Below are positions 29,290 through 63,430 of a stretch of 64,000 nucleotides of DNA, piece by piece. The notes below the pieces were generated by a model, which did not search any database, was not told where the DNA came from, and was given only the letters and a program-made list of their open reading frames with translations. Within the stretch, counting starts at the first letter, position 1. Every line of letters starts with the position of its first letter. Location of the stretch: assembly GCA_036898135.1 (NCBI GenBank), contig CM072522.1, forward strand, positions 2,692,921 to 2,756,920, written 5' to 3'. The position numbers were made by a program, and so were the translations under genes. The DNA is from Oncomelania hupensis (lineage: Eukaryota; Mollusca; Gastropoda; Littorinimorpha; Pomatiopsidae).

Positions 29290-30267
29290 TGTAACGGAGG
29301 TTTTTTTTGTGTATTATAATCTAAATAAATATATGTATAACTACTTATGGTGTAATGAATGAGTGTGTGGGTGTGGCTGTCTGACGCTCAGTATAAAGGA
29401 GTGTGTTCTATCTCTGTTTACTTTAACTATTCATCCTTCACCACACACATGCTTTCAGACAAGGACAAAGTCTACACAATTGTTTCTCTTTGCCCTCTGT
29501 TAAGCTATTACTCATTCAAGCATGATCATACACATTAAACCATTTACATATACATTAAATTCACAGATACATTAAATCATACGATTCTTTCCAGCATATA
29601 AATAAATCACACAGCTGATAAATAAGCACAAATAGTTAACGTAGTACTTTTACCCAGTTAAGCTGATGGGGCCACATAGTTACTACCAGAGTTCAACGCT
29701 AGCAAAAGTCGTTGTCCTTTCTAAGGACGTCACTCGACTCTTCTCTTTTCCATTAGCACCGGAGCACAGAAAATGTCACAGTTTTTATTTAGGCCTACTG
29801 ACCGTGTTTCGCGGATCAAACACTCCCGGCGCGGTATTCACAGCCGACGCTGGGGTCACAGCCACACACTGAAGACGCTGCAGTTGTCTTCGTGGCGTTG
29901 ATCCGGAGATTCACTTCGGTACCGTTGTTGCAATTCTGCACCAGTGATGGTATCCGAAGGAGAGCTACGGCGATGATGGTGTCCACATCAGGTCAAGCCA
30001 GTGATGTCATGGGGACCAAATCCATCCGCCGCACATCAGGGGTCCTTTGCTCCGTAACCGCTCCGCTGTATTCTTTATACAGCAAAAGTAATTCCTAAAG
30101 AATCAGGTCTTTCTAGAGCACCCCACGTAAAAACGTCCTCTCGCTTAGGCTGATGTATAGTCTCTGATCTAACAACAGCTCAGAAACCAAATTATAATTT
30201 CTACCGGAACACACAGTGACGTCATAACGTCTTTCTACAGAAAAATGTACGAACTGCGTCCGTTACA
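29290..30267 (-). repeat. 3' LTR of the minus-strand retrotransposon
   Basis: 978 bp, begins TGTAACGG and ends CCGTTACA. Carries an open frame (29666-29872) conserved in the other LTR simply because LTRs are copies. Confidence 0.92.
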
Positions 30268-30292
30268 CTACCCCCCTCCCAAAGAAAAAAAG
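30268..30292 (-). promoter_or_regulatory. polypurine tract
   Basis: On the minus strand the internal region ends with a purine-rich run (tttgggaggggggtag) immediately before the 3' LTR. It is the expected primer for plus-strand DNA synthesis, and the main frame stops inside it. Confidence 0.8.
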
Positions 30293-33200
30293 AACCGACC
30301 GAGGTTATTTTTTACAAGTTCTGAGGATAGTGTCAAAACACAGCAACGACCACGAAACCTTGATCTATGGAACCGATTGATCACGATCAGCGCGTGACAA
30401 CAGATCCGCGAACACATTCTGTGTACCTGGAAGTGGTTCAAGAGTGAATCTGAACTCTTGTACGGACATGAACCATCATCCTGGATAACGCCAATACCTA
30501 CTGTAGGGACAGTATGCCTATCTGTAGAAATATCCACCCGAGAAACACAACACTGAGGTTCCACAACCTCGACATCTGGAAGCAAAAATGGAAATATGGA
30601 AGCTTTCGGTTTACGACCGAACATCCGATCACAAAGACTGAAACCTGCACTTTCTGACGGCAATTCTTTACATTCGAAGAGCAATGTAGGAAGATAGCGA
30701 TGCCAAGCCTTCGGTTGAGAATGAACAACCTTTCGAAGCATAGATTTCAAAGTGCCATGAAACCGTTCAACAGTACCATTTGCTTGAGGATGGTAGGGAG
30801 AAGTACGTATGGCTTGAGTACCACACAAAGCATGAAACTGTTTCATCAAATCTGAGTTGAACTGAGAACCTTGATCAGAAAGAATTTCCTTGGGAAAACC
30901 TAACCTTGAAAAAATACTCATCAAAGCTTCAGCAACTGCAACAGAAGAAATGTCTTTCATAGGAACAGCTTCGGGAAACCTGGTAGCCAAGTCAATCAAA
31001 GTCAGAATATATCTGTGACCTTCAACAGATGGAGGAGACAAAGGCCCAACTAGATCAATAGCGACCCTCTCGAATGGAGTCGAGATAAGAGGCATAGTCG
31101 CCAAAGGAACAGGGGGAACTTTTCCTTTTGAAATTGTCTTCTGGCAAATGTCACAAGTGTGAACATAAGCACTCACATCAGCAGAAACACCAGGCCAAAA
31201 GAATTGGGACAGAATCCTAGTCAAAGTTCTACGAACTCCACAATGACCTGCCAAAAGTTGATCATGCGCAGCAATCATGACTGAAGTGCGAAGTTTTTCA
31301 GGAACAACAACCTGATGCAAAATATCCTTGGATTTCTGATACCTTCTGTACAAAATTTCATCTTTAAAATAGAAAGTATAAGTAGCAGAACCAACAACCT
31401 TTTCTTCACCTGAAACAGCTAACTTAAAACAACCCTGCAAAGTAGCATCATCTTTCTGCAACTGAATAAGTTCAACACGAGTGACCTTCAAGTCATCGCA
31501 CACAGTGACAAGAGGTTTGTGCGGGAGATCTTGCTTCCTAGCCTGAGCACGAGTAGTGACAGCAGCAACAGGGACATCAGCAGCAGCAGCAACTTTGGTA
31601 TCTTGGGTCTGCTGAACAATCAAACCTGGAATATTTCCTACAATCAAGTCAGCAACTGGATCCTCAAGAACACAACAAACCAACTCTCCAACAAAATATG
31701 GACAAGAAACAACAACCTTAGCCTGCTGATAGATGTTTATCTCTCCACCAAAAGTTTTACAACGAACAATACCTGGCACATACTGCTCATCAGAAACCAA
31801 ACGTTTTCGAACACCACAAATGGTAGCACCTGTGTCTCGCAGAACTGAGCAAGCAGTAGAATTTACAGAACCAACTTCTAAATGCAAGTGACCAGGTGTC
31901 TGATCAAAAACAGAACAAACAACTTCAGAGTCCACAGGGACAACTGCACAACCAGAGCTTGATTTATTAGTCTTATCATCTGAAGCTGTGGCTTTCTTCA
32001 CAACAAAGGGACAAGCCTTTCTAGTATGACCACCAATGTTGCAAATAGGGCAAGGATTTTGACTATTTCGAAGGGGACATTGTTTAGGACCATGACCTTT
32101 ACCATCACAAAGAGGGCAATTATCAAAATTGGAGTAAAATGAACCACCTCCACGTCCACGTCTATAAGATCCCCGAGTTTGATCAAAACGACCTTCGACC
32201 TTTTGGTTCGAATCTGTGTATGTTGGGTCTTTCTTTTGAAAACCACCACGATTTCTCCAATAGCCACGACCTCGATAGTTTGAGTAACCACCGCGAGAAT
32301 CTGCAGAGCCAGCACCAGCTTGCGATTCCTCAGCTACATCAACTGATCCTACTGAACCGAAAATTGTAGCAGCCGATTTGCGTGCTAAGTTCTTTCCGGG
32401 ACGAGCAAGACGATAACTTTCAGCAGTTTTAACCATATCATCCAATGTGACAAGTCCACGCTCGCGAATGAAAGTAGCAAGATCTTGTGACACACATTCT
32501 AGAAACTGCTCACCTAACACAAGATTCATTATTCCTTGCATGTTTCTAGGAACACCTGACAAAGCTATCCACCTATCAAACAATCTGTTCAGTTCAATAC
32601 CAAATGTTTGGAAAGGTTCGTTTGAGTCTGGTCGGACTTCACGGAATTTCTTGCGAAAACCTTCAGCAGTACACTGGAACTTCTTAAGCAAATTGTCTTT
32701 CAATGTTGGATAATCAACCTGACCATTTGCAGCAAGACTGTGGTATAAGTTCAGTGCATTACCTTCTAACAAAGCTGAAAGAAATGTAACCCATTTGCTT
32801 TTATCCCAGCCAAGGGCTGTAGCATGAGTCTCAAAACGAAAAAGGTATGAATCTATGTCATCTTGTCTTTCTTTGAAAAGAGGCAACTTGGGGTAAACAG
32901 GTCTAGCACCAAAAGAAGTACTATCTCTACCTCTGTTTCCAAAACCCGTATCTTGTTCCTCAGGTCTATGTTCAGAACGGAACTCAAATTCCTTTTGTTT
33001 AGTTTTCTCTCTCTCTTTTTCTAACTCAACATCTGCTTGTTTATTTGCTTGTTCAACTTCTGCTTGTTTAGTTGCTAGTTCAACTTCTGCCTGTTTTTTA
33101 GCTAATTCAACATCTGCTTGTTTTTTAGCTAATTCAACATCTGCTTGTTTCTTTGCTAATTCAATCTCCAAAGTTTTCTGTTTTGTTTCTTCTTCTAATT

Positions 33201-33339
33201 TTTTTTCATCTCTTAATCTTTGTCTCTCAAGACGATCAAAACAATCCTGTACATATTTTCCACGATCTTTATCAGGAATACCCAAAGTTGTAGCTTGAGC
33301 AATAAAAGATTGGAACAACTGATCATAATCATCAGACAT
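30268..33339 (-). CDS. gag-protease-integrase protein of a Gmr1-like gypsy element
   Basis: About 1023 codons; I place the start at ATG 33339 (MSDDYDQ), not the upstream TTG. In order: an N-terminal coiled coil with repeated ELAKKQADV units; a capsid-like domain (about residues 150-310); two CX2CX4HX4C knuckles (CPLCDGKGHGPKQC and CPICNIGGHTRKAC); an aspartic protease with RDTGAT; a linker containing VTTRAQAR; the integrase HHCC finger (ending HTCDICQK); and an integrase core with D-x59-D-x35-E (AIDLVGP, LSDQGSQF, ANGTVERF). Integrase follows protease directly. The C-terminal ~130 residues after GRKPKAS lose family similarity as the frame runs into the deleted RT/RNase H region. The protein could at best be a non-autonomous gag-pol fragment. 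Confidence 0.88.
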   Translation of the reverse strand: MSDDYDQLFQSFIAQATTLGIPDKDRGKYVQDCFDRLERQRLRDEKKLEEETKQKTLEIELAKKQADVELAKKQADVELAKKQAEVELATKQAEVEQANKQADVELEKEREKTKQKEFEFRSEHRPEEQDTGFGNRGRDSTSFGARPVYPKLPLFKERQDDIDSYLFRFETHATALGWDKSKWVTFLSALLEGNALNLYHSLAANGQVDYPTLKDNLLKKFQCTAEGFRKKFREVRPDSNEPFQTFGIELNRLFDRWIALSGVPRNMQGIMNLVLGEQFLECVSQDLATFIRERGLVTLDDMVKTAESYRLARPGKNLARKSAATIFGSVGSVDVAEESQAGAGSADSRGGYSNYRGRGYWRNRGGFQKKDPTYTDSNQKVEGRFDQTRGSYRRGRGGGSFYSNFDNCPLCDGKGHGPKQCPLRNSQNPCPICNIGGHTRKACPFVVKKATASDDKTNKSSSGCAVVPVDSEVVCSVFDQTPGHLHLEVGSVNSTACSVLRDTGATICGVRKRLVSDEQYVPGIVRCKTFGGEINIYQQAKVVVSCPYFVGELVCCVLEDPVADLIVGNIPGLIVQQTQDTKVAAAADVPVAAVTTRAQARKQDLPHKPLVTVCDDLKVTRVELIQLQKDDATLQGCFKLAVSGEEKVVGSATYTFYFKDEILYRRYQKSKDILHQVVVPEKLRTSVMIAAHDQLLAGHCGVRRTLTRILSQFFWPGVSADVSAYVHTCDICQKTISKGKVPPVPLATMPLISTPFERVAIDLVGPLSPPSVEGHRYILTLIDLATRFPEAVPMKDISSVAVAEALMSIFSRLGFPKEILSDQGSQFNSDLMKQFHALCGTQAIRTSPYHPQANGTVERFHGTLKSMLRKVVHSQPKAWHRYLPTLLFECKELPSESAGFSLCDRMFGRKPKASIFPFLLPDVEVVEPQCCVSRVDISTDRHTVPTVGIGVIQDDGSCPYKSSDSLLNHFQVHRMCSRICCHALIVINRFHRSRFRGRCCVLTLSSELVKNNLGRFFFSLGGG
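30365..30463 (-). pseudogene. RNase H C-terminal remnant, out of frame
   Basis: In another minus-strand frame, 32 codons ending in a stop read ...FRFTLEPLPGTQNVFADLLSR..., the conserved end of gypsy RNase H domains (PG..N..AD.LSR). Its place after integrase and just before the polypurine tract shows that RT and RNase H originally lay downstream of integrase and were mostly deleted. Confidence 0.85.
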
Positions 33340-34962
33340 GGCTAAGTACAATGTAGACCAGCAATCAACAAAAAAAAAAATTACTATAAAAGTATCAAAG
33401 TGTTCAACCAGTAAATCAATAAAATATCAAAGTATCAACAATGAAATGGTCAAATGCAATCAATCAAACAACTATAAATTGCTCAATGAATCTTATGAAA
33501 ACAATTAAGGTTTTTTCAAAAGCAGCTTTTCAATACAATGCACAATTCAAGTTATAATGAGAGCAGTCAAGTCTTAATGTAAACAAAGCAAATTATATAT
33601 TATATTATCCAAATATGTTTTACAAGTTCCGAAGCAATGACAAAAATTTTTAAATATCAAATGGAATACACCAAGTCAATATATTCACAACATATGCTGA
33701 AGAACTTCAACTGAAGTTGATAATAAGCACAATGAATATACAGTGAGAGATTAAATTACTAAGTTAAGTTTGGATCCAAGTATTTGTCAAACAGTCTTTT
33801 AGTTTTAAAGTATGATAATATTATTATGCATAATCACAGTAATAAATCTATTCATAAGTATTTAAAGTTTGTATTAATGTCAATAGGAATTTAAAAAAAA
33901 AATTTTTTTAATAAATTTCTAAGTCAAATAAAATAATCCAAACACTCAAACTCACAATCAAATTGTTACCTCCCTTGCCCCAGAGAATAATTATATAAAC
34001 AGTGTAAAAAACTATCCTAATGAAAAATATATACAACGCCCACAAAAGAAATATTATTTAAACAAAGTTATTAAATAAAGAATTATGAAATGAGAAAAAA
34101 AAAAAACAATTAACTCTCAACACAATAAGCACTAGAACTAAATAATACTATAATACCAAGCTGACGGCCAAAGGAAAATAAACTCAACAAAATAACAAAG
34201 TCTTATGAAGTTTAATTTTATAAATAATAAAATCAATAAATGTCACACTAACTACTATACTATTCTATATCCAATTAATATTCAAAGTCAAACAGAATTA
34301 CTAAACCAAAATAAAATAAAAATCACAAAACACAAACTATCAGCACTAACAATCCAACATGAACCAAAGGAAACAATGTATTAACAACTAAACTAAATCA
34401 AGGGAAACAATTTAACAACCAAGCTAAATCAAGGGAAACAATTTAACAAGGATAATCCAGCATAACTACATACATAAATACAGAATATTATAACATCAAA
34501 CTCAATGTAAATCAAACACAATGAATAAATAAAATAAATTAAATTAAATTAAATGGGGCTGAAATCCTAATACTATAACCTACTTAAAATAAGGGCAAAG
34601 AGAACATACACCCAAACACACGCATGAAAGGACAGAACCCTACACAGCAAAGAACTAACCAAAAACAAACAATCCCACTAACAGAAGAACAGAGCTGAAA
34701 ATAAGAAAATAGCAACCCACAGACAGAAAAAGAATTAAGCCCTTAGTGCCCAGAAACTGTACACAGGCACAGCCGTTACGCCGGAGACAGCATTGTCACA
34801 CAAAACAAAACATCACAGTCATACACAATATAATCAAGAAGTCCAAGGGAGATAAGCCCACTAGTCTAACAGTATAAATATATATAATAACTAGTGGTGC
34901 CCTCAATAAATATAAATATGTATGACTTAATGCTAACACAGAGAGAGTCTAGGGTCACCAAA
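33340..34962 (-). other. AT-rich leader of the minus-strand retrotransposon
   Basis: About 1.6 kb without coding frames between 5' LTR and gag. Holds a 31-bp tandem repeat (about 34362-34450, ctaaatcaagggaaacaatt). The bases next to the 5' LTR (minus strand TTTGGTGACCCTAGACTCTC) are the expected primer-binding-site position; I could not assign the tRNA by eye. Confidence 0.7.
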
Positions 34963-35920
34963 TGTAACGGAGGGTTTTTTTGTGTATTATAATCTAAATA
35001 AATATATGTATAACTACTTATGGTGTAATGAATGAGTGTGTGGTTGTGGCTGTCTGACGCTCAGTATAAAGGAGTGTGTTCTATCTCTGTTTACTCTAAC
35101 TTCTCATCCTTCACCACACACATGCTTTCAGACAAGGACAAAGTCTACACAATTGTTTCTCTTTGCCCTCTGTTACACTATTCTCATTCAATTATTCACA
35201 TATACATTAAACCATCTTCACATACACTAAATTCACAGATACATTAAATCATACGATTCTTTCCAGCATATAAATAAATCACACAGCTGATAAATAAGCA
35301 CACATAGTTAACGTAGTACTTTTACCCAGTTAAGTTGATGGGGCCACATAGTTACTACCAGAGTTCAACGCTAGCAAAAGTCGTTGTCCTTTCTAAGGAC
35401 GTCACTCGACTCTTCTCTTTTCCATTAGCACCGGAGCACAGAAAATGTCACAGTTTTTATTTAGGCCTACTGACCGTGTTACGCGGATCAAACACTCCCG
35501 GCGCGGTATTCACAGCCGACGCTGGGGTCACAGCCACACACTGAAGACGCTGCAGTTGTCTTCGTGGCGTTGATCCGGAGATTCACTTCGGTACCATTGT
35601 TGCAATTCTGCACCAGTGATGGTATCCGAAGGAGAGCTACGGCGATGATGGTGTCCACATCAGGTCAAGCCAGTGATGTCATGGGGACCAAATCCATCCG
35701 CCGCACATCAGGGGTCCTTTGCTCCGTAACCGCTCCGCTGTATTCTTTATACAGCAAAAGTAATTCCTAAAGAATCAGGTCTTTCTAGAACACCCACGTC
35801 CTGTCACTAAGGCTGATGTATAGTCTCTGCTCTAACAACAGTTCACAAACTATTCGAAAAAGTATGCAGTGACGTCATACCGTCTTCCTACAGAAAAGTG
35901 TACGAACTGCGTCCGTTACA
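34963..35920 (-). repeat. 5' LTR of the minus-strand retrotransposon
   Basis: 958 bp, same TGTAACGG...CCGTTACA termini as 29290-30267, with a number of indels relative to it. Confidence 0.92.
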
Positions 35921-51099: not shown

Positions 51100-51549
51100 T
51101 GTGACGTGGGGTTCTATTGTTGCTGGGCTCTGCACAATGGACTGCTATAACCCTCTCGTCTTATTCAATAGGGACCGCTAGTGAATCACCCTGTGAATTA
51201 CTTTAATACATTTATTTGTTTAGCTCGGTATGTGTTTAGGCTGGGGTACAGAGATAGATAGAAAAATGGTAAAAAATCGCTGTCACACTAGCTTTCACAC
51301 GGCTATGAAACATATGTAGTCCAGCCACTTGATAACAGTAAAAAGCACACATTTATTTCCTCTACTCTATACATGATTTTCGATGTACGAAACTAACTTA
51401 AAAGTTCAAATGTCAATGCGAATGGTTCGCTCGCTGATAATCTAGGCAGCTACTTTTTCTTCATCGGGCACTGGCTACTTTCTGCCTTAAGGGTCAGCGT
51501 TTTTGAAGCGTGGACTACTGTGGTCCTGTTTATACAGAGTTTTAGTGCA
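51100..51549 (-). repeat. old solo LTR, first segment (reverse orientation)
   Basis: Begins tgtgacgtgggg and is the diverged reverse complement of the 3' part of the 1537-bp LTR at 55020 (for example 'gggctctgcacaatgga', 'ttatttgtttagctcg', 'cacactagctttcacacggc', 'atgtagtccagccacttgat', 'tggactactgtggtcctgtt'). It breaks off at tttagtgca, where the LINE was inserted. Confidence 0.85.
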
Positions 51550-54500
51550 TGCTCTGTGGGTTCGGGCAAATAGAATAGACCCAACGTTTCCCGGCGTGTC
51601 GTAAGAGGCGACTAACAGGGGTGATGTTAGCACGGCATCACTGGGCGAAAGTCTTCTACACAGAAGTCACCGGCCAGGGCGGAGGAACCTCACGTTACTA
51701 CAGGTTCAACGACCACGTGCTCAGGGCCAAGGCGAGCCACACTGTATTCGTGGATTTCGGCTGTGGCCAACAGCCTGGAGAGGATTGGGCCCTGCCAGGT
51801 CTTTTTTTTTGCCCAAGACACAACACATGATGAGGCTATCCACTAATTCCATGCCGGATCGGTCGTCGCCCGGCTACACAAGGACCGCGCCTTCCGTTGG
51901 CCACCAGGACGGAGGTGAAAAGTATGCTACTGATGGACAAACTAGCAAGATCCGCACGAGAAACAACATCGTCATAGGAACCTGGAATGTCAGGACCCTA
52001 ACTGCGGAAGGAAAATTAGAAGAACTGGCCCACGAGCTGGACCACTATCGATGGAACGTTCTAGGTATCAGCGAACTGCGCTGGAAAGGCCTAGGTGAAA
52101 CAACGACTGACAAAGGCCACAAGCTCTATTTCAGCGGTAGAGATGACAGGCACGAACACGGCGTTGGATTCTTGGTCCACAAGAACATTCTAGCCACTGT
52201 CATGGGTTGCCGCCCAGTCTCCAGTAGACTCATTACCATCCGTCTGAGAGCAACCCCTTTCAACATTACCATCATCCAGGCCTATGCCCCAACATCAGAC
52301 TATGAAGACAGCGAAGTGGAGGATTTTTATGAAAATATACAGGTGGTCCTTGACCAAGTGCCGAAGAAGGACATAGTCATAGTGCAAGGCGACTGGAATG
52401 CCAAGGTTGGCCAAGATGCGCACCACAACTGGGGAGACACATGCGGACCCCACTGCAACAACGAGACAAATGACAGGGGTCTGAGGCTATTGGAGTTTGC
52501 CAGATACAACAATCTGGTACTGGCAAACACGCTTGGTCTCCACAAAAAATCCAGACGATGGACATGGCACAGTCCCGGCGGGGAACATCACAACCAGATC
52601 GACTACATCATGGTCAAGAAACGCTTCAGATCAAGCATCAACATTGGCAGGACACGCACTTTTCCAGGAGCAGACATTGGAAGTGACCACGATCTCGTGA
52701 TGATGTCTTTCCGGCTCCATTTGAAGAGAGTAAATACAGCAAAGTGCACTAGGCTGAAGTTCGACCTGGACAAACTGCAAGACCCGGAGGTGGCAAAAAT
52801 ATTTCAGGCCACAATTGGAGGGAAATTTGCACCACTGCTTATTTTGGGGGCAGGCGAAGTAGATGTCAACACCATGACCAATACCTTCAACTCAGCTGTA
52901 ACAGATGCCGCCACTGAGATCCTTGGCAAGCACCGACCAAAGAAGAAGCCGTGGATCACACCTGAACTTTTGGATCTGTGTGATAAACGAAGAGAGTTAA
53001 AAAAGAAAAAGAACACCTCACAGGGAGCTGATGTCTACCGAAAAATCAACAATGACATCCGAAAAGGCATGCGAACAGCAAAGGAGAACTGGATAGAAGA
53101 TCGATGCCAGGAAATAGAGAACAATCTGAACAAGAACAACAGCAAGAAGGCCTACCAGACTGTGAAGCGGCTGACAAGTGTTAAACAGCCCAAAGTCTCC
53201 ACTATCCAAAGCAAGTCTGGCATTTGCCTTACAGAAGAACAAGAAGTCTTGGACAGATGGACAGAGTACTGCTCTGACCTTTACAACCATACACCAAATG
53301 GAGACCCATCAGTTCTAGCATGTCCCGAGAGCAGAGAAGAAGAAGAAATCCTCCCAATTCTCCGGGAAGAAGTTGAGGCAGCAGTGCAATCGCTGAAGAA
53401 AGGGAAGTCAGCGGGAGTGGACAACATACCAGCGGAACTGCTACAAGCAGGAGGAGAAGCGATGACTGATGCTCTCACCATTATCTGCAACAAGATCTGG
53501 CAGAGTGGGGAATGGCCTACACCATGGACCCAGTCGCTTGTCATCACTCTTCCCAAAAAAAGGTAACCTTCAGGAGTGTGAAAATTACCGCACCATCAGC
53601 CTCATCAGCCATCCCAGCAAGGTCCTCCTGAAAATAATACTCAACAGGTTGAAACCACAAGCTGAACAAATCATAGCTGAAGAACAAGCAGGATTCATGG
53701 CAGGGCGAAGTACCACTGAACAGATTTTCAACCTCAGAATAATCTGTGAGAAATACCTACAGCACCAACAACATCTATATCATGTGTTCATAGACTTCAA
53801 GAAGGCATTTGACCGAGTCTGGCATGCAGCTCTATGGGCAACCATGAAAGTGTACAACATCAGCCCTAAAATTATAGAAGTCATCAAAAGCCTGTATGAC
53901 AAGGCTACCAGTGCAGTCCTCCATAACAGCGTCATCGGGAACTGGTTCAGAACAACAATCGGTGTGCGTCAAGGATGCCTACTCTCTCCAACACTCTTCA
54001 ACATCTTCCTAGAGCGCATCATGTCAGATGCTCTTGCAGATCACGAAGGCACAGTCAGTATAGGGGGCAGAGCAATCTCCAATCTTCGTTTTGCGGATGA
54101 TATTGATGGATTGGCTGGAGAGGAACAAGAACTTGAACAGCTTGTACAGAGGCTTGACACCACCTCCAGAGCTTATGGAATGGAAATAAGTGCGGAGAAG
54201 ACCAAAATGATGACCAACAACACCAATGGCATCAACACGGACATCAAAGTACAAGGCCAATCCCTCAACACAGTGCACAGCTTCAAATATTTAGGAGCCA
54301 TTGTGTCAGACAATGGGTCTCGACAGGAAGTCCTCTCCAGGATCGCACAAACAACTGCTGCCCTGACAAGGTTGAAGCCCATTTGGAAAGACAGAACCAT
54401 CAGTCTACATTCCAAAGTAAGACTGCTGCGCTCTCTGGTCATCTCCATCTTCCTATATGCTTGCGAAGCATGGACCCTCACAGCAGATCTCCAACGAAGA

Positions 54501-54899: not shown

Positions 54900-55019
54900 T
54901 TTAGTGCACGGTTTCTTGTTGCACTTAACTGTGGGGTTGAAGCGCTGCGTTGAGGTCGCTTCTATGACATGCTGTGTTGTCGTTGAGTCTTTGACTGAGT
55001 GGTTCGACGGTTGGGTTAT
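54900..55019 (-). repeat. old solo LTR, second segment
   Basis: Continues the reverse LTR after the LINE: tttagtgcac, gcacttaact and ttgaggtcgcttct align with the reverse complement of 56000-56110. It ends at gttat, the target duplication of the young element. Confidence 0.65.
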
Positions 55020-56556
55020 TGTCATGAACCGAGCAGTTTACCCTGCCCATTGACTATTTAGCCATGTGTAGTATTTGTAACAGTAGAGAAGTTAGACTAT
55101 TACACAGCAGCAATTAAATTACACAGTAAACCACACACCGCGAGCCCGACCCACATCGCAGTGAGTCAGCACTTGAGCTTTGAATCGGACCGTTTTAACC
55201 AATCAGAGCAGGCTCAGTGGGTAGAGCAGTTTTGACTGTGTCAGAGCCTAAGACAGTTTGAATCAGTCGTGTGTGAGCCGAGGTAGAGTCAACATCTCCA
55301 CAGCTAGAGAAATCTCTACACTCATAGACCAGGAAGCAGGACTTTGAAATCTTAGAATTCTCTCAAGTCATCACGGGCCTGAACTTGTCAAACAGGTAAA
55401 TGAACACCCTTCTGTTTCATCGTGATATATTTGTATTATTGTTGAAATTATGTTGGTGGAATTTGCTATGCATAAATGTGAATTGTTAATCCGAATTTGC
55501 GGGACCACGTGAAAGAGCCGACCACGAGGCGAAACACGACCGGTTGCGCCGCCATGTTGTATCCCGTACGGAACCACTGTTGTTTAACTTATATGTATGT
55601 TTGCAGACCAGTGACTGTACCCGTGAATGTTTATATTATTATTAATTCTGTATGTGTATAGTTAGACACGATTGATATTTATGTATATATAGGAATTTAG
55701 AGTGAGATTCCAGTGGAACCCGGAAGTAGCAGAATGTTCGTCGCTTATGTATAGAGATGTGGAGCTATCACTGAGGGCTACTTGGCTTTCAGTGAGACGC
55801 TCTGCACAAACCGATTATTCAGGGTTGTGCAGAATTTCGTCTCTTATATTACAGACGAGCAGGCGAGCTATCCCGAGCTATCCCGAGCTATCCTGTGTGC
55901 CCCACTCCACAGAAACGACTAGTTGGTTGAGGAGACTCTACCGCACAAGTCGGAAAGAGCCACCTTGAAACACACCCTATCAGACCCCACAGCGTGGCAA
56001 GGGAACCCAACTACACAACTACAAAGGTGTACCAGAAGCTACCTCACAGAAGGACTTCGACCGCACCATCAGAAAGTTAAGTGTAATCTCCGAAAGTGCA
56101 CTTAAACTGATCATAACAGGACCACAGTAGTCCAACTCTTCAGAAACTGTAAAACGGACCACAGTAGTCCAAATCTACATGAGATATTATAGCAAGTGCC
56201 CGAGGAAGATATAACAGCTGCCTAGACTATCAGCGATCGAACTATTAGCAGTGACTGAGACTTTTTAAGTTAGATTAGTACTTAGAGAACCTTGTATAGA
56301 GTAGAAGAAATAAATGTGTGATTTTAACTGTTATCAAGTGGCTGGACTACATATGATTCATAGCCGTGTGAAAGCTAGTGTGACAGTATTCTTTTACCAT
56401 TTTTCTATCTATTTCTGTACCCCAACCTTAACACAGAACGAGCTAAACAAATAAATTTATTAAAGTAATTTATAGGGTGACTTACTAGCAGTTCCCACCG
56501 AATAAACGTGAGGGTCCATAATTCCATTGTGCAGAGCCCATAAACCCCACGTGACA
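55020..56556 (+). repeat. 5' LTR of the young Gmr1-like element
   Basis: 1537 bp, TGTCATGAACC...CCCCACGTGACA. It has a possible TATA-type promoter (tatgtatatatagg, about 55680-55693) and AATAAA signals at about 56309 and 56501. An apparent 88-codon frame (55702-55968) recurs in the 3' LTR only because the LTRs are copies. Confidence 0.95.
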
Positions 56557-57214
56557 CTTTAATTGGCGAGCCTAGCCAGGATCTGTGTATAATAGGAATT
56601 GGGTATAACCGGACCTAAGTACAATAAAATTAGATAACAGTAGAAGTAGAATAACTTAGAATAGTGTAAGGGTATAACACTGATCAGTTGGGTGCACTAT
56701 TCTTTAGTTAAAAACAGTGTCGGATAGTGCAGTGGTTGGAGCACTCGCTACTGTGTCGAAAGTGAAGCACCGTCCGGTGCGGTTAGCACTTGGATGGGTG
56801 ACCGCTAAGGTGTGAAGCGACAAACAACAACGCCCCCAGTTGACTCAACTGTGATTGAGTACCTACTCTCTTGAGGGTGGGGAAGGTAAAGCAGCGAGGG
56901 AGAGAGTTGGGCATCACCCTCATTACGCTGGCCCAAGATAAGTGTGATCTCCAACATCACGCTCCCCTACGGCCACAAGGCTATGGGACTACCTTTACCT
57001 TTTACCTTTTTGCTTCAAATATTTTTGTGCCTGTATGTTGCATTGTTCTTTTGCAGGTTTTGCTTAAATAACTGTTGTATGCCATATGACTCTTGTTTTA
57101 TTCTATTATTGATTACGACTTGTATGGTCTTTGCATTGTTTTTATTGACTTGCAATATTGCTAGTGTTTTGGTATTCCACTTGATTCAGAGGGTGTTCAT
57201 AGACACGTTTGGCA
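56557..57214 (+). other. leader of the young element, with primer-binding-site position
   Basis: Starts ctttaattggcgagcctagc right after the LTR; this is where the tRNA primer should bind, but I could not assign the tRNA. Contains the 5S-rRNA-like segment at 56756-56810. The end before gag is AT-rich and leucine/phenylalanine-coding in a short unrelated frame (56944-57330), probably a shadow. Confidence 0.7.
56756..56810 (+). other. 5S rRNA-like segment in the retrotransposon leader
   Basis: Reads tcgaaagtgaagcaccgtcc then ggtgcggttagcacttggat and gggtgaccgctaagg. Animal 5S rRNA has the same order (..GAAGTTAAGC.., GGTTAGTACTTGGATGGGTGACCGC), the region containing the box C part of the internal promoter. 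The 5' half of 5S is not present; a tRNA-like stretch (gatagtgcagtggttggagc) lies just upstream instead. A pol III-derived or SINE3-type insertion is one explanation. Confidence 0.65.
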
Positions 57215-60200
57215 ATGTCGGACCCAGTGGCCTTGAGATTGCGTTTCAAGGAATTGGGAGAAGCTTTACACTTAGCAGGGGGAGACCTAATTGCGTACAT
57301 CAATGCCGAGGTAGAGAAACAGGAGGCTAAGGCAGAGAGAGCAGCAGAGAGAGAGGCAAAGAAATTAGAAGCTGAACAAAAGAAACTAGCATTAGAAGCA
57401 GAGCAAAAGAAAGCAGAGTTAGAAGCAGCAAGAGAGCAAAAGAAATTAGAATTAGAAGCAGAGCAAAAGAAAGCAGAGTTAGAAGCAGCAAGAGAACAGA
57501 AGAAATTAGAATTAGAAGGAGAACAGAAGAAGGCAGCATTAGCAGCAGAGAGGGAAGCAGAAGTTAGGAAATGAGAGTATGAGAGGGCAGAAAAGGAAAA
57601 AGACAGACAGCATGAGTTAGAATTGAAAAGATTGGAATCAGGAGCGTCAAGTTCTTCCTCAACCCCTCCCCACTCAGATCAGCTAGAGGTAGCCCCCAAC
57701 CCTGTACAAGGAATGTCATTCCCACTGGGAACATTCAATGAGAGAGAGGAAGGTCTAGATCTCTATCTGACTAGGTTTGAGCGTCTAGCAACAGAGTACA
57801 AACTAGATCCCACTCATTGGTCGTTCAAGCTTAGTCAAGGGCTTAGAGGAAAGGCTTATGACATCTACAGTAAGCTACCGACTGACAGAGTGACTGACTA
57901 TCACAAAGTAAAAGAGGCACTCCTAACGGGATTCGAACTGACAGGAGAATGCTACCGGCAAAAGTTCCGCACCAATCGGAGAGTGAAAGGAGAGAGCTAT
58001 GCGCAGTTCGCGGATCGGTTGTCCACAATGCTGGATAAGTGGATTAGCCAGTCAGCCACGGCAAAGACGTATGATGGACTGACAGAACTGTTAGTATGGG
58101 AACAGCTACGGGAAACCATGACCCCCGAGCTGAGAACATTCTCAGTAGAGCAGGGCGCGGAAAGACTAGAAGATCTGGTCAAGGTCGCAGATAGGTACGT
58201 GGCCGCACACGGAGAAGCCAAGAGCTTCAGGCGAGACCTAAAGCCTAACGGGAAAGAGGCACAGAAACGAAGCCCTAACCGGGAAGAGCGCACCGCGAAT
58301 AAGCCGAATAACCCCAGACCTGGGCAAAATAAAGGACCCAACGCGGAATTCGGGAAAAGAGGTCCCGCAGAACAGAGACGGTATTGTTCGTTCTGCAACA
58401 GAAACAATCACTCCACCGCAGAATGTTTCAAGTTGGCCGCACAACGGAGGGAAGAGCGCGAAAGCCGGCCAGCGCACAGAGTTCTAACTCAAAGTAGCGG
58501 TAACAAGCCACACACGATCGGAGATCACCCATCGGTGACAGACACGGTCAAGGTCAACGGAAAAGAAGCGAACTGTCTGTATGACACAGGTCTATCATAC
58601 GACGCGATAGTTAGCGAATCTCTGGTATCGCGCGCGGACTTGACAGACAAGACAGTCGACTTACAAGGAGCAGACTTGACGAAACCGACGACTACTTGCC
58701 CAATAGCTTGGATCGAAGTAGAGAGTAGGTACGTCACAGGACGAATCCAAGCAGCTGTTTTACAGAAACCCCTGTATGATCTAGTGCTAGGTTGTAGGTA
58801 TGTGTTCTTAGGCACGCCCCCTAAAACTGTAGAGATAGCTGCAGTGCAAACCAGGGCCCAAGCTAAAACCCAACCACCCCAGCCCGAGTTCGCTCCGAAT
58901 CCAGGACTCGAAGAGATCAAAACAGCACAGAAAGAAGACACCTCGATAGCGAAGTGCTTCCAGAAGCTACCCAAGGCGCACACACCCCCGCACAAGGGAG
59001 ACTTCTACATGGAAGAGGGAGTTCTACATCGACAAGGAGATGGAGATCACACCCAACTAGTACTGCCAGCCACCCTTCGAGCCCAAGTACTAGAACTAGG
59101 CCACAGCATGCCACTCAGCGGACACATGGGAATTGGAGCCACAGTGCAGAGAATCAGCGCACACTACTATTGGCCAGGAATCACGGAGGATGTCAAGCGC
59201 TACGTGAAATCTTGCCACCAATGTCAACGATATTCCCCGCGACATCACACCATACCAGTTACCTTAGGACCATCAGTAGTAGTCGGCGTGCCATTCCAGC
59301 AAGTCTCAGTAGACATAGTAGGACCACTGCCCATGACCAAGAAGAGGAACAGATTTCTACTCACACTCGTCGACGCATGTACGATGTGGTGCGAAGCAGT
59401 CCCGTTGCCAGCGATTGACACCAAGAAGATTGCAGATGCACTCATCGCCATCTTTACCAGAGTCGGATTCCCGGACAGCATTAGAACGGACAACGGATCT
59501 CAGTTCACCGGCCGCCTGATGCAAGACGTGTTCGAGTTGATACAAGTTCATCACATTCGCACACCACCATACCACCCCGCCAGCAACGGACAAGTAGAAA
59601 GACTGAATGGAACCCTTCTCACCATCCTCAGGAAAGTCGCCGACGACAATCCAGAAGCGTGGGACACCTACGTGAATGCGGCACTGTTCGCATACCGAGA
59701 AACGCCCCATGCAGCCACAGGCTACACCCCGTCAACATTGCTATTCGGCAGACCTCTAGCAGGACCGCTAGAAGCCCTACGCAGAAGTTGGACGGAAGCC
59801 AAGATAGACGACACACCAAGAGGTGCCACCAAGTACGTCGCAGACCTGCAGGAAACCCTCAAAGCAACGTGGAAGAAAGCTGGTGAAGCACTGAAGAAGG
59901 CAAGAGCCCGTCAGGCGAAGTACTACAACCGCCACGCGAAGGACAGAGAACTGCAAGTCGGCGATCAAGTGCTACTCTTACTTCCAAGTGGAACCAACAA
60001 GCTGGACATCGCTTGGAGAGGACCGTACCGGGTGACTGCCAAGAAATCCAAGACAGTCTACCAAGTAGAGGTGAACGGGAGAGCCCGATACCACCACATC
60101 AATCTCCTCAAGAAATACACGGACCGACCAGCGACCCCCAGCACTCACAACTTGTTAGCCATCGCCATCGCGGAAGAAGGAGAAAGCATGGAGACCAATG

Positions 60201-61720
60201 CAGTAGAGTATCCCCTGCACTCCAAAGAAACCTACAAAGACGTGATACTCAACGGAGACCTAGCCGCTAACCAGCGACAGCAAGTACTACAGGTCATTCG
60301 ACAACATCAGACTGTGCTCACAGACCGACCAGGGAGGACAGACCTCGTCGAAGTAACCTTAACGGTGACCGACCCAACACCCGTCCGCCAGAAGCTCTAC
60401 CCGATGCCACTGTCTCAGCAGCGAGCCATCAAGGAAGAGATAGACACCTTACTGGCAGCCGGAATCATCTCAGAGTCTACCTCACCCTACAGCGCAGGCA
60501 CGGTACTGTTGCGAAAACCCAACGGAGAGCATCGACTGTGCATCGACTTCAGACTCCTGAATGCGGTAACGCAGTTCCAGCCAGAGCCACTCCCGGACCA
60601 GACCGACCTATTTGCCAAGCTACAGCGAGCGAAGTACTTCTCACGCATCGACCTCAGCAAAGGATACTACCAGATACCAGTACAACCACAAGTCCGAAAG
60701 TACCTAGCTTTCAGCACTATGGAAGGACACTTCGAGTTCAACGTACTTCCATTCGGACTCCACAACGCACCCAGCATCTTCAGCGCCATGATGCGAAAAC
60801 TCCTGGCACCCCTGAGCAGCGAGCACCTACATTCGTTTATGGACGACATCCTCATCGCTACACCTACGTGGGAGGAACATGTCACGCTCCTACAGCAACT
60901 ACTCGCCCGCCTCAGAGACACGGGATTGACGGCAAGACCCACCAAATGTCAGATTGGATTCACGGAACTAGAATTTCTGGGACACACCATCAGTCAAGGA
61001 AGCCTGCGACCGGTAGAAAAGACCGTGAAACGCCTACTCGACGCTCCTAGGCCCAAGACCAAGAAGGAAGTGCAGTCATTTCTAGGACTCTGCGGCTTCT
61101 ACCAGAAGTTCATCCCCAACTACAACAGCATCGCCGTACCACTGACTAATGGAACCCGGAAAATCGCCCCGGACAAAGTAGTATGGACAGCCGAATGCGA
61201 GACAGCATTCCAAACACTCAAGGACAGAATGACATCGGCGCCAGTACTCCACCTACCCGATTTGACTCAGCCATTCGTTCTTCGCACCGACGCAAGCGAC
61301 TTAGGCCTCGGAGCAGTACTGCTACAGCGCGACCCCAAGAATGCAGAGACGCTATTCCCTGTCGCCTACGCCAGCAGAAAATTGAGACCCGCCGAGACCC
61401 ACTACGCCACGTCGGAGAAAGAATGTCTTGGACTAGTCTGGGCCATACAGAAGTTTCAACTCTACCTGTATGGGACCCACTTCACAGTTCAGGTGGACCA
61501 CCAACCACTATCGTTCCTGGCAGCCTCCAAGTCTTTGAACTCTCGCCTGATGCGATGGGCACTCACCCTTCAGGCATACTCATTCCAAATCGAGTACATC
61601 CCCGGCAAAGAGAACCACGGAGCCGACTACCTCAGTCGCCATCTCGTGGAGGACACAGCAGCTGTCGCCCACCCAACACAACTAAGGGCCACAGCACCAG
61701 AATTCGTCCCCGCCCAATAA
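57215..61720 (+). CDS. gag-pol polyprotein of a Gmr1-like gypsy element, one in-frame stop
   Basis: The first ATG of the frame is 57215 (MSDPVALRLR); the TTG at 57209 is not needed. An N-terminal coiled coil with repeated AEQKKAELEAA units runs to a TGA at 57572-57574; the same frame is open again to 61720. Domains in order: capsid-like region (57740-58220); one CX2CX4HX4C knuckle (CSFCNRNNHSTAEC, 58385); protease with YDTGLS (DTG at 58583); linker VQTRAQAKTQ; integrase HHCC finger (ending CHQCQ, about 59230); integrase core D-x58-D-x35-E (codons at 59312, 59489, 59597); GPYRV chromatin/DNA-binding tail; RT with RIDLSKGYYQIPV and FMDD (60842); RNase H with TDASDLGLGAVLL and ending GADYLSR. 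All catalytic residues are present. The stop precedes the capsid, so it would cut off nearly all the protein unless read through. Confidence 0.93.
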
Positions 61721-61888
61721 AAACCCTGTCACTAGTGTCCATAGCTACCTGGCACAGTATTGCAGCTCAGGTAGAGCAACTTACTTAGTTTGTAAATAGG
61801 ACCCTAGGATAGTGCAGTGTTAAACTAGGCTCTGTAGTAGAAAAAGGTCGAATCCAGTAGTCATCGCCTTTTTTCAGTTGAGGGAGCC
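61721..61888 (+). promoter_or_regulatory. 3' untranslated part and polypurine tract
   Basis: Ends gttgagggagcc immediately before the 3' LTR, a short purine-rich tract broken by the final CC. At 61811-61860 a stretch with gatagtgcagtgttaaac and ggtcgaatcc resembles the tRNA-like part of the leader (gatagtgcagtggttggagc). Confidence 0.6.
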
Positions 61889-63425
61889 TGTCATGAACCG
61901 AGCAGTTTACCCTGCCCATTGACTATTTAGCCATGTGTAGTATTTGTAACAGTAGAGAAGTTAGACTATTACACAGCAGCAATTAAATTACACAGTAAAC
62001 CACACACCGCGAGCCCGACCCACATCGCAGTGAGTCAGCACTTGAGCTTTGAATCGGACCGTTTTAACCAATCAGAGCAGGCTCAGTGGGTAGAGCAGTT
62101 TTGACTGTGTCAGGGCCTAAGACAGTTTGAATCAGTCGTGTGTGAGCCGAGGTAGAGTCAACATCTCCACAGCTAGAGAAATCTCTACACTCATAGACCA
62201 GGAAGCAGGACTTTGAAATCTTAGAATTCTCTCAAGTCATCACGGGCCTGAACTTGTCAAACAGGTAAATGAACACCCTTCTGTTTCATCGTGATATATT
62301 TGTATTATTGTTGAAATTATGTTGGTGGAATTTGCTATGCATAAATGTGAATTGTTAATCCGAATTTGCGGGACCACGTGAAAGAGCCGACCACGAGGCG
62401 AAACACGACCGGTTGCGCCGCCATGTTGTATCCCGTACGGAACCACTGTTGTTTAACTTATATGTATGTTTGCAGACCAGTGACTGTACCCGTGAATGTT
62501 TATATTATTATTAATTCTGTATGTGTATAGTTAGACACGATTGATATTTATGTATATATAGGAATTTAGAGTGAGATTCCAGTGGAACCCGGAAGTAGCA
62601 GAATGTTCGTCGCTTATGTATAGAGATGTGGAGCTATCACTGAGGGCTACTTGGCTTTCAGTGAGACGCTCTGCACAAACCGATTATTCAGGGTTGTGCA
62701 GAATTTCGTCTCTTATATTACAGACGAGCAGGCGAGCTATCCCGAGCTATCCCGAGCTATCCTGTGTGCCCCACTCCACAGAAACGACTAGTTGGTTGAG
62801 GAGACTCTACCGCACAAGTCGGAAAGAGCCACCTTGAAACACACCCTGTCAGACCCCACAGCGTGGCAAGGGAACCCAACTACACAACTACAAAGGTGTA
62901 CCAGAAGCTATCTCACAGAAGGACTTTGACCGCACCATCAGAAAGTTAAGTGTAATCTCCGAAAGTGCACTTAAACTGATCATAACAGGACCACAGTAGT
63001 CCAACTCTTCAGAAACTGTAAAACGGACCACAGTAGTCCAAATCTACATGAGATATTTTAGCAAGTGCCCGAGGAAGATATAACAGCTGCCTAGACTATC
63101 AGCGATCGAACTATTAGCAGTGACTGAGACTTTTTAAGTTAGATTAGTACTTAGAGAACCTTGTATAGAGTAGAAGAAATAAATGTGTGATTTTAACTGT
63201 TATCAAGTGGCTGGACTACATATGATTCATAGCCGTGTGAAAGCTAGTGTGACAGTATTCTTTTACCATTTTTCTATCTATTTCTGTACCCCAACCTTAA
63301 CACAGAACGAGCTAAACAAATAAATTTATTAAAGTAATTCATAGGGTGACTTACTAGTAGTTCCCACCGAATAAACGTGAGGGTCCATAATTCCATTGTG
63401 CAGAGCCCATAAACCCCACGTGACA
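61889..63425 (+). repeat. 3' LTR of the young Gmr1-like element
   Basis: 1537 bp, same termini as the 5' LTR, about seven substitutions relative to it. Confidence 0.95.
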
Positions 63426-63430
63426 GTTAT

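What the first reader, a model, noticed from the sequence alone, without database searches (positions are those of the whole stretch)
55020..63425. Nearly intact gypsy-type retrotransposon with integrase placed before reverse transcriptase
The polyprotein reads gag, protease, integrase (D-x58-D-x35-E and a GPY tail), reverse transcriptase (FMDD), RNase H. Ty3/gypsy elements normally have RT and RNase H before integrase. The inverted order is known for the Gmr1 group, first described in deuterostomes. The RT, RNase H and GPY-type integrase are gypsy-like, so this is not a copia element. LTRs nearly identical, exact 5-bp duplication: recently active. A lophotrochozoan member would extend the known range of the group if that host assignment holds.
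Basis: partly seen in the sequence, partly recalled or inferred. Interest (0 to 1): 0.8.

Follow-up and report, generated by a model that had tools for sequence, protein, structure and literature searches.

The report
Young Gmr1-type retrotransposon in a mollusc
A recently inserted jumping gene of a known but unusual kind, whose integrase lies before its reverse transcriptase, sits in a mollusc genome that carries very many copies of it; the layout is already known from other animals.

Summary
At 55020-63425 lies an LTR element: two 1537-nt LTRs with 7 mismatches, 5-bp duplication GTTAT, then gag (SCAN-type), protease, integrase (D58D35E, GPY), reverse transcriptase (FMDD), RNase H, in that order. 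One correction: an in-frame TGA at 57572-57574 splits gag, so this copy is not intact. It is a Gmr1-type Ty3/gypsy element. All 120 listed protein relatives have integrase first. RT and integrase trees, made apart, put integrase-first rows on one side of one branch (support 99-100), also against eight conventional gypsies of the same genome: neither a chimera nor a nested insertion. The host is a mollusc by its haemocyanin genes, probably a gastropod. The family is large and young: 3063 exact LTR-leader junctions; LTR pairs of 8 of 10 sampled copies differ at 0-6 sites. The claimed range extension is not new: Gmr1 elements are published for crustaceans (2013) and an annelid (2021), and mollusc proteins of this layout are public. 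A 2018 mollusc survey does not list Gmr1, so molluscan members may be under-described. A second, deleted Gmr1-type element lies at 29290-35920.

The parts
55015..55019 (.). target-site duplication GTTAT, left copy
55020..56556 (+). 5' LTR, TGTCA...TGACA
56564..56583 (+). presumed primer-binding site TGGCGAGCC..., resembling the complement of a tRNA-Arg 3' end (tRNA recalled, not tested)
   Evidence: sequence; variants of the same site in other copies
56723..56826 (+). 5S-rRNA-like stretch in the leader, possibly part of a SINE-type insertion
   Evidence: below the gathering score
57215..57571 (+). gag N-terminal part with coiled-coil repeats, followed by in-frame TGA 57572-57574
57575..61720 (+). 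open frame of 1381 codons: gag rest, protease, integrase, RT, RNase H
57947..58216 (+). SCAN-type capsid domain of gag
   Evidence: PF02023 E 3.8e-10
58385..58432 (+). CCHC zinc knuckle
58544..58792 (+). aspartic protease (DTG)
   Evidence: PF13650 E 9.1e-06
59066..60034 (+). integrase: H2C2, DDE core (D 59312, D 59489, E 59597), GPY motif
60512..60991 (+). reverse transcriptase, FMDD 60836-60847
61259..61579 (+). RNase H
61880..61888 (+). weak presumed polypurine tract
   Evidence: read by eye
61889..63425 (+). 3' LTR
63426..63430 (.). target-site duplication GTTAT, right copy
29290..35920 (-). second, older Gmr1-type element: LTRs 29290-30267 and 34963-35920, SCAN gag and integrase in one frame (30268-33426), integrase tail to most of RNase H missing
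51100..51549 (-). old fragment of a related LTR (two pieces, 84% and 83% identical)

Best explanation
It is a young member of the Gmr1 lineage of Ty3/gypsy LTR retrotransposons, in a mollusc, and moves by ordinary LTR retrotransposition. The LTR drives a transcript that is packaged by gag and primed by a tRNA at the site just inside the 5' LTR; protease cuts the polyprotein; RT and RNase H copy the RNA; integrase inserts the DNA with a 5-bp duplication. Its one unusual trait, integrase encoded before RT, was inherited from the ancestor of the integrase-first lineage and did not arise in this copy. Shown: anatomy, duplication, order, shared history of RT and integrase, many young copies, few amino-acid changes in pol between copies. 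Inferred: transcription, packaging, priming tRNA, processing sites. This copy itself is probably disabled in gag by one stop codon.
For: Anatomy and duplication. 120 of 120 listed relatives have integrase before RT. Ty3 is the best solved relative of both parts (RT 1.4e-78; integrase 1.9e-32). In the careful trees the integrase-first rows are one side of one branch with support 100/100 in RT (38 against 36 rows) and in integrase (39 against 36); with eight conventional gypsies of the same genome added, 100 and 99 in quick trees. SCAN-type gag, as described for Gmr1 (PMC4592553, passages). In the genome: 3063 exact LTR-leader junctions, reversed-pattern control 0; LTR pairs of 8 of 10 sampled copies differ at 0-6 sites; dN/dS 0.057 in integrase (22 of 30 loci) and 0.027 in RNase H (25 of 30) (loci ranked by RT identity, so biased low); 78 of 150 scored copies have an open frame of 1440-1700 codons.
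Against: No named Gmr1, Mag or CsRN1 reference sequence could be put in the trees; the clade name rests on order, SCAN gag and published descriptions. The first integrase tree warned that one long conventional branch (P0258) meets the integrase-first side, a join that may be false. No transcript data. The gag frame of this copy carries a stop codon.
Confidence: 0.95

Rival explanations
1. A chimera: integrase and RT come from different element families.
For: The order is unusual for gypsy elements; over all rows the window's distances in the first RT and integrase trees hardly correlate (0.03).
Against: P0001, P0002 and P0003 are among the five nearest rows in the RT trees and in the integrase trees (P0004 too in 88 and 89); both sets separate by order with one change.
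Confidence: 0.02
2. The order was made by two overlapping nested insertions.
For: The window is rich in transposons.
Against: One uninterrupted 1381-codon frame, no inner LTRs, same order in 120 of 120 listed relatives; integrase lies at the same spacing and strand beside RT in 28 of 30 loci of other copies (L004 had no integrase match in the stretch, L024 a displaced partial one).
Confidence: 0.01
3. The integrase-first order arose more than once, so the lineage called Gmr1 here is a mixture.
For: The conventional rows came from a Ty3 search whose named hits are yeasts, plants and green algae, the rest unnamed; the known animal conventional rows are eight, all from one genome and found by likeness to Ty3.
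Against: One change suffices in all trees made with both sets.
Confidence: 0.08

Closest known systems
Gmr1 group of Ty3/gypsy (Goodwin and Poulter 2002, content recalled; seen as a reference in PMC6238403)
   Same: integrase before RT, gypsy-type RT and integrase, SCAN-type gag
   Different: host is a mollusc; protein distance to the named original elements not measured
Proteins of Biomphalaria glabrata such as P0009
   Same: same layout; nearest relatives with an organism name, P0009 55% identical over integrase to RNase H
LGF3 of Lamellibrachia luymesi (PMC8220671)
   Same: lophotrochozoan, filed as Gmr1 by separate RT, RNase H and integrase trees
   Different: annelid; sequence not compared here
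Ty3 (PDB 7q5b)
   Same: best solved relative of RT and integrase
   Different: RT before integrase; RT to RNase H 38% identical

Membership tests
Gmr1 lineage | integrase encoded upstream of RT | tested here: met
Gmr1 lineage | RT and RNase H of gypsy type, not copia | tested here: met
   Ty3 best in PDB; PF00078 and PF17917/PF17919
Gmr1 lineage | integrase of gypsy type with GPY module | tested here: met
   Ty3 best; WRGPYRV; C-terminal Pfam matches below their cut-offs
Gmr1 lineage | gag capsid homologous to the SCAN domain | tested here: met
   PF02023 39.9 bits, cut-off 27; link to Gmr1 from PMC4592553
Gmr1 lineage | groups with named Gmr1 elements in RT and integrase trees | not testable with these tools
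   no named Gmr1 reference sequence at hand; groups with other integrase-first rows
Ty1/copia | copia-type RT and integrase | tested here: not met
   only the order is copia-like; best matches are Ty3, (no copia rows were put in the trees)

The most novel reading that the evidence does not exclude
Molluscs hold a large, still active and largely undescribed radiation of Gmr1-order, SCAN-gag elements; the rearrangement of pol happened once and before protostomes and deuterostomes parted.
Probability: 0.45. Interest if true: 0.45.

Novelty: new member of a known kind. Interest (0 to 1): 0.3.

Why it matters
It gives a young, very abundant Gmr1 family in a mollusc, a phylum whose 2018 LTR survey lists five known gypsy clades without Gmr1 (PMC6238403, passages with Table 1). 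It adds to the signs that the SCAN-type capsid, from which a vertebrate transcription-factor domain is thought to descend, also occurs in protostome elements, and it fits a single rearrangement of pol for the integrase-first elements compared here.

Tried and rejected
Scans of viral contigs with the RT piece and with an RT alignment, and of prokaryote genomes with a Ty3-window alignment, gave no relatives. Rfam at gathering threshold found nothing in the window. The LINE at 51605-53566 was tried for naming the host; its named hits include fish, crab, urchin and two bacterial records, so it was no help. Flanks joined as an empty site: the left flank matches other LINE copies up to about 120 nt before the insertion, the right flank only 23 nt elsewhere, so no empty site was found in the window. 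One row of the Ty3 set seemed integrase-first, but is a fused RT-integrase-RT-integrase protein. Two very long open frames (2 of 150) were looked into and the stretches fetched read N for the most part, so they mean nothing. The PDB search with the gag piece found nothing at 0.01. Distances in the first two trees correlate only modestly (114 rows, Mantel r 0.32, 0 of 2000 shuffles as high; the window's own row 0.03). only waited.

Full report
What is there. The element runs from 55020 to 63425, flanked by GTTAT. Its LTRs are 1537 nt long with 7 mismatches and no gaps (Kimura distance 0.0046). The inner part holds one open frame of 1381 codons, 57575-61720. Pfam finds, in this order, SCAN, aspartic protease, H2C2 and integrase core, RT, RNase H. 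The integrase triad is D-58-D-35-E, with GPY behind it; the RT motif is FMDD. Between the end of the frame and the 3' LTR lie 168 nt, too little for an env gene.

Where the copy is broken. The gag start is at 57215, in the same frame, and a TGA at 57572-57574 cuts it off before the capsid. In relatives P0001, P0003 and P0006 the N-terminal part and the capsid share one frame. The stop is not at the gag-pol border, so programmed readthrough is unlikely (inference). Frames of full length exist in the family: 78 of 150 scored copies have 1440-1700 open codons, 70 have fewer, and 2 longer ones are not usable.

Order and history. The search with integrase to RNase H found 1229 proteins at E up to 1e-20 among 7993 candidates, best 120 listed. 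In 120 of 120 the integrase lies before RT. The contrasting set, seeded with Ty3, gave 114 of 120 RT-first, 5 with RT alone, and one fused duplicate. For the trees I took 38 of 121 integrase-first rows (120 and the window) and 36 RT-first rows (Ty3 and 35 of 106 usable rows; 10 best and 25 drawn at random). The split by order is a single branch with full support in both careful trees. The first integrase tree warned of a long conventional row, P0258, that meets the integrase-first side; it is still long. Eight conventional gypsies from the same genome, 8 of the 150 listed (150 of 13997 candidates scored), all show RT, RNase H, integrase, and fall on the RT-first side in both quick trees. So this element is no private chimera, and one change of order suffices for all rows compared.

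The host. The window lies in a genome of 1,449,719,270 bases in 428 contigs. The haemocyanin beta-sandwich family of molluscs (taxon range recalled) matches at 66 places of 77 scored, on two contigs, and in 0 of 14 control genomes. Two exons were compared with solved haemocyanins; 8trz and 3j32 come first, but that ranking adds up eight repeats of long chains. Among single units, 8tnv (Concholepas unit CCHB-g; the name is recalled from its code, a gastropod) scores 105 bits, 1js8 (Octopus, recalled) 64 and 63 bits, and 1lnl (Rapana, a gastropod, but another unit; recalled) 53 and 51 bits. So a mollusc is well supported and a gastropod likely, not shown. The nearest named relatives of the element, in Biomphalaria, fit this.

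Number, age and selection. The RT piece matched with 100% amino-acid identity in 150 of 150 scored copies, out of 17657 candidates. A 26-base pattern across the LTR end and primer site occurs 3063 times exactly (1471 + 1592), its reversed control 0 times. If all were full length this would be about 1.8% of the genome. Ten copies were taken from the top of the list (ranks 1-9 and 11; rank 10 was passed over). Eight gave LTR pairs over 1000 nt long with 0-6 substitutions; of the other two, one gave a 408-nt partial alignment with 5 substitutions and one gave no pair in the stretches fetched. By eye, six of the eight show a 5-bp duplication; in two it was not resolved. Against the window copy, integrase shows 239 synonymous and 44 other changes (dN/dS 0.057; 22 of 30 loci) and RNase H 222 and 20 (0.027; 25 of 30); gapped or partial loci were left out (8 and 5). 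RT showed no amino-acid change in 30 of 30, but these loci were ranked by RT identity, so that figure is biased, and the others lean the same way. The LTRs of these copies differ more from the window's (mostly 85-95% identical over the stretch compared, lowest 77%) than their pol genes do, as expected for several lineages that kept moving under selection on pol (inference). With an assumed rate of 2e-9 per site and year (recalled), the window's copy would be about one million years old.

A second case in the same window. On the minus strand, 29290-35920, lies an older element with LTRs about 94% identical and the duplication CAAAT (read by eye). Its frame has SCAN gag and an integrase 41% identical to that of the main element over 232 residues; a protease was not matched there. 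No RT match was found, and just before the LTR, in another frame, lies a remnant that looks like the end of RNase H (read by eye). If that reading is right, it had the same order.

What is known. Gmr1 elements and their order are established (PMC6238403, PMC8220671, PMC3587641, passages). The finding's range claim was met by crustaceans in 2013 and an annelid in 2021; a second annelid survey of 2021 did not find the clade in its own set. The homology of SCAN to Gmr1 gag is stated in PMC4592553 (passages); the original paper was not held. In molluscs, the 2018 survey names C-clade, AB-clade, CsRN1, Cigr-1 and Tor2 as the known clades and mentions Gmr1 once, in the background. Searches for Gmr1 or the inverted order with mollusc and lophotrochozoan terms listed 5, 2 and 3 papers, and a wide one 91, of which I saw 40 listed; from listings and passages none described a mollusc member. 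The library lacks most subscription papers and Repbase, so this is weak evidence. Proteins of this layout are public in the molluscs Littorina, Biomphalaria, Batillaria, Babylonia, Pecten, Mizuhopecten, Ylistrum and Argopecten, and also in echinoderms, shrimp and a tick.

Verdict. A well-supported new member of a known kind, of moderate interest for its abundance, youth and phylum.

Noticed in passing
window 29290-35920: Second Gmr1-type element with SCAN gag and integrase, lacking the integrase tail to most of RNase H; CAAAT duplication, LTRs about 94% identical.
   Followed up: partly
window 56723-56826: 5S-rRNA-like stretch inside the element's leader, perhaps part of a SINE-type insertion; below Rfam's cut-off.
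   Followed up: partly
window 51605-53566: LINE frame whose best hit, 98% identical over 66% of it, is a protein filed under Acinetobacter baumannii on a 3.3-kb contig: most likely animal DNA in a bacterial record.
   Followed up: no
own genome, contig C1 about 19.817-19.846 Mb: Five LTR-leader junctions at spacings of 7128-7136 bases: a tandem array of LTR-plus-inner units, perhaps from recombination between LTRs.
   Followed up: no
window 51100-51549: Old fragment of a related LTR on the minus strand beside the LINE.
   Followed up: no
own genome, contigs C9 and C13: Clusters of molluscan haemocyanin exons, suggesting several multi-unit genes.
   Followed up: partly
window 57363-57550: Repeats of 27, 33 and 60 bases code the coiled-coil part of gag; repeats of this kind could vary in number between copies.
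   Followed up: no
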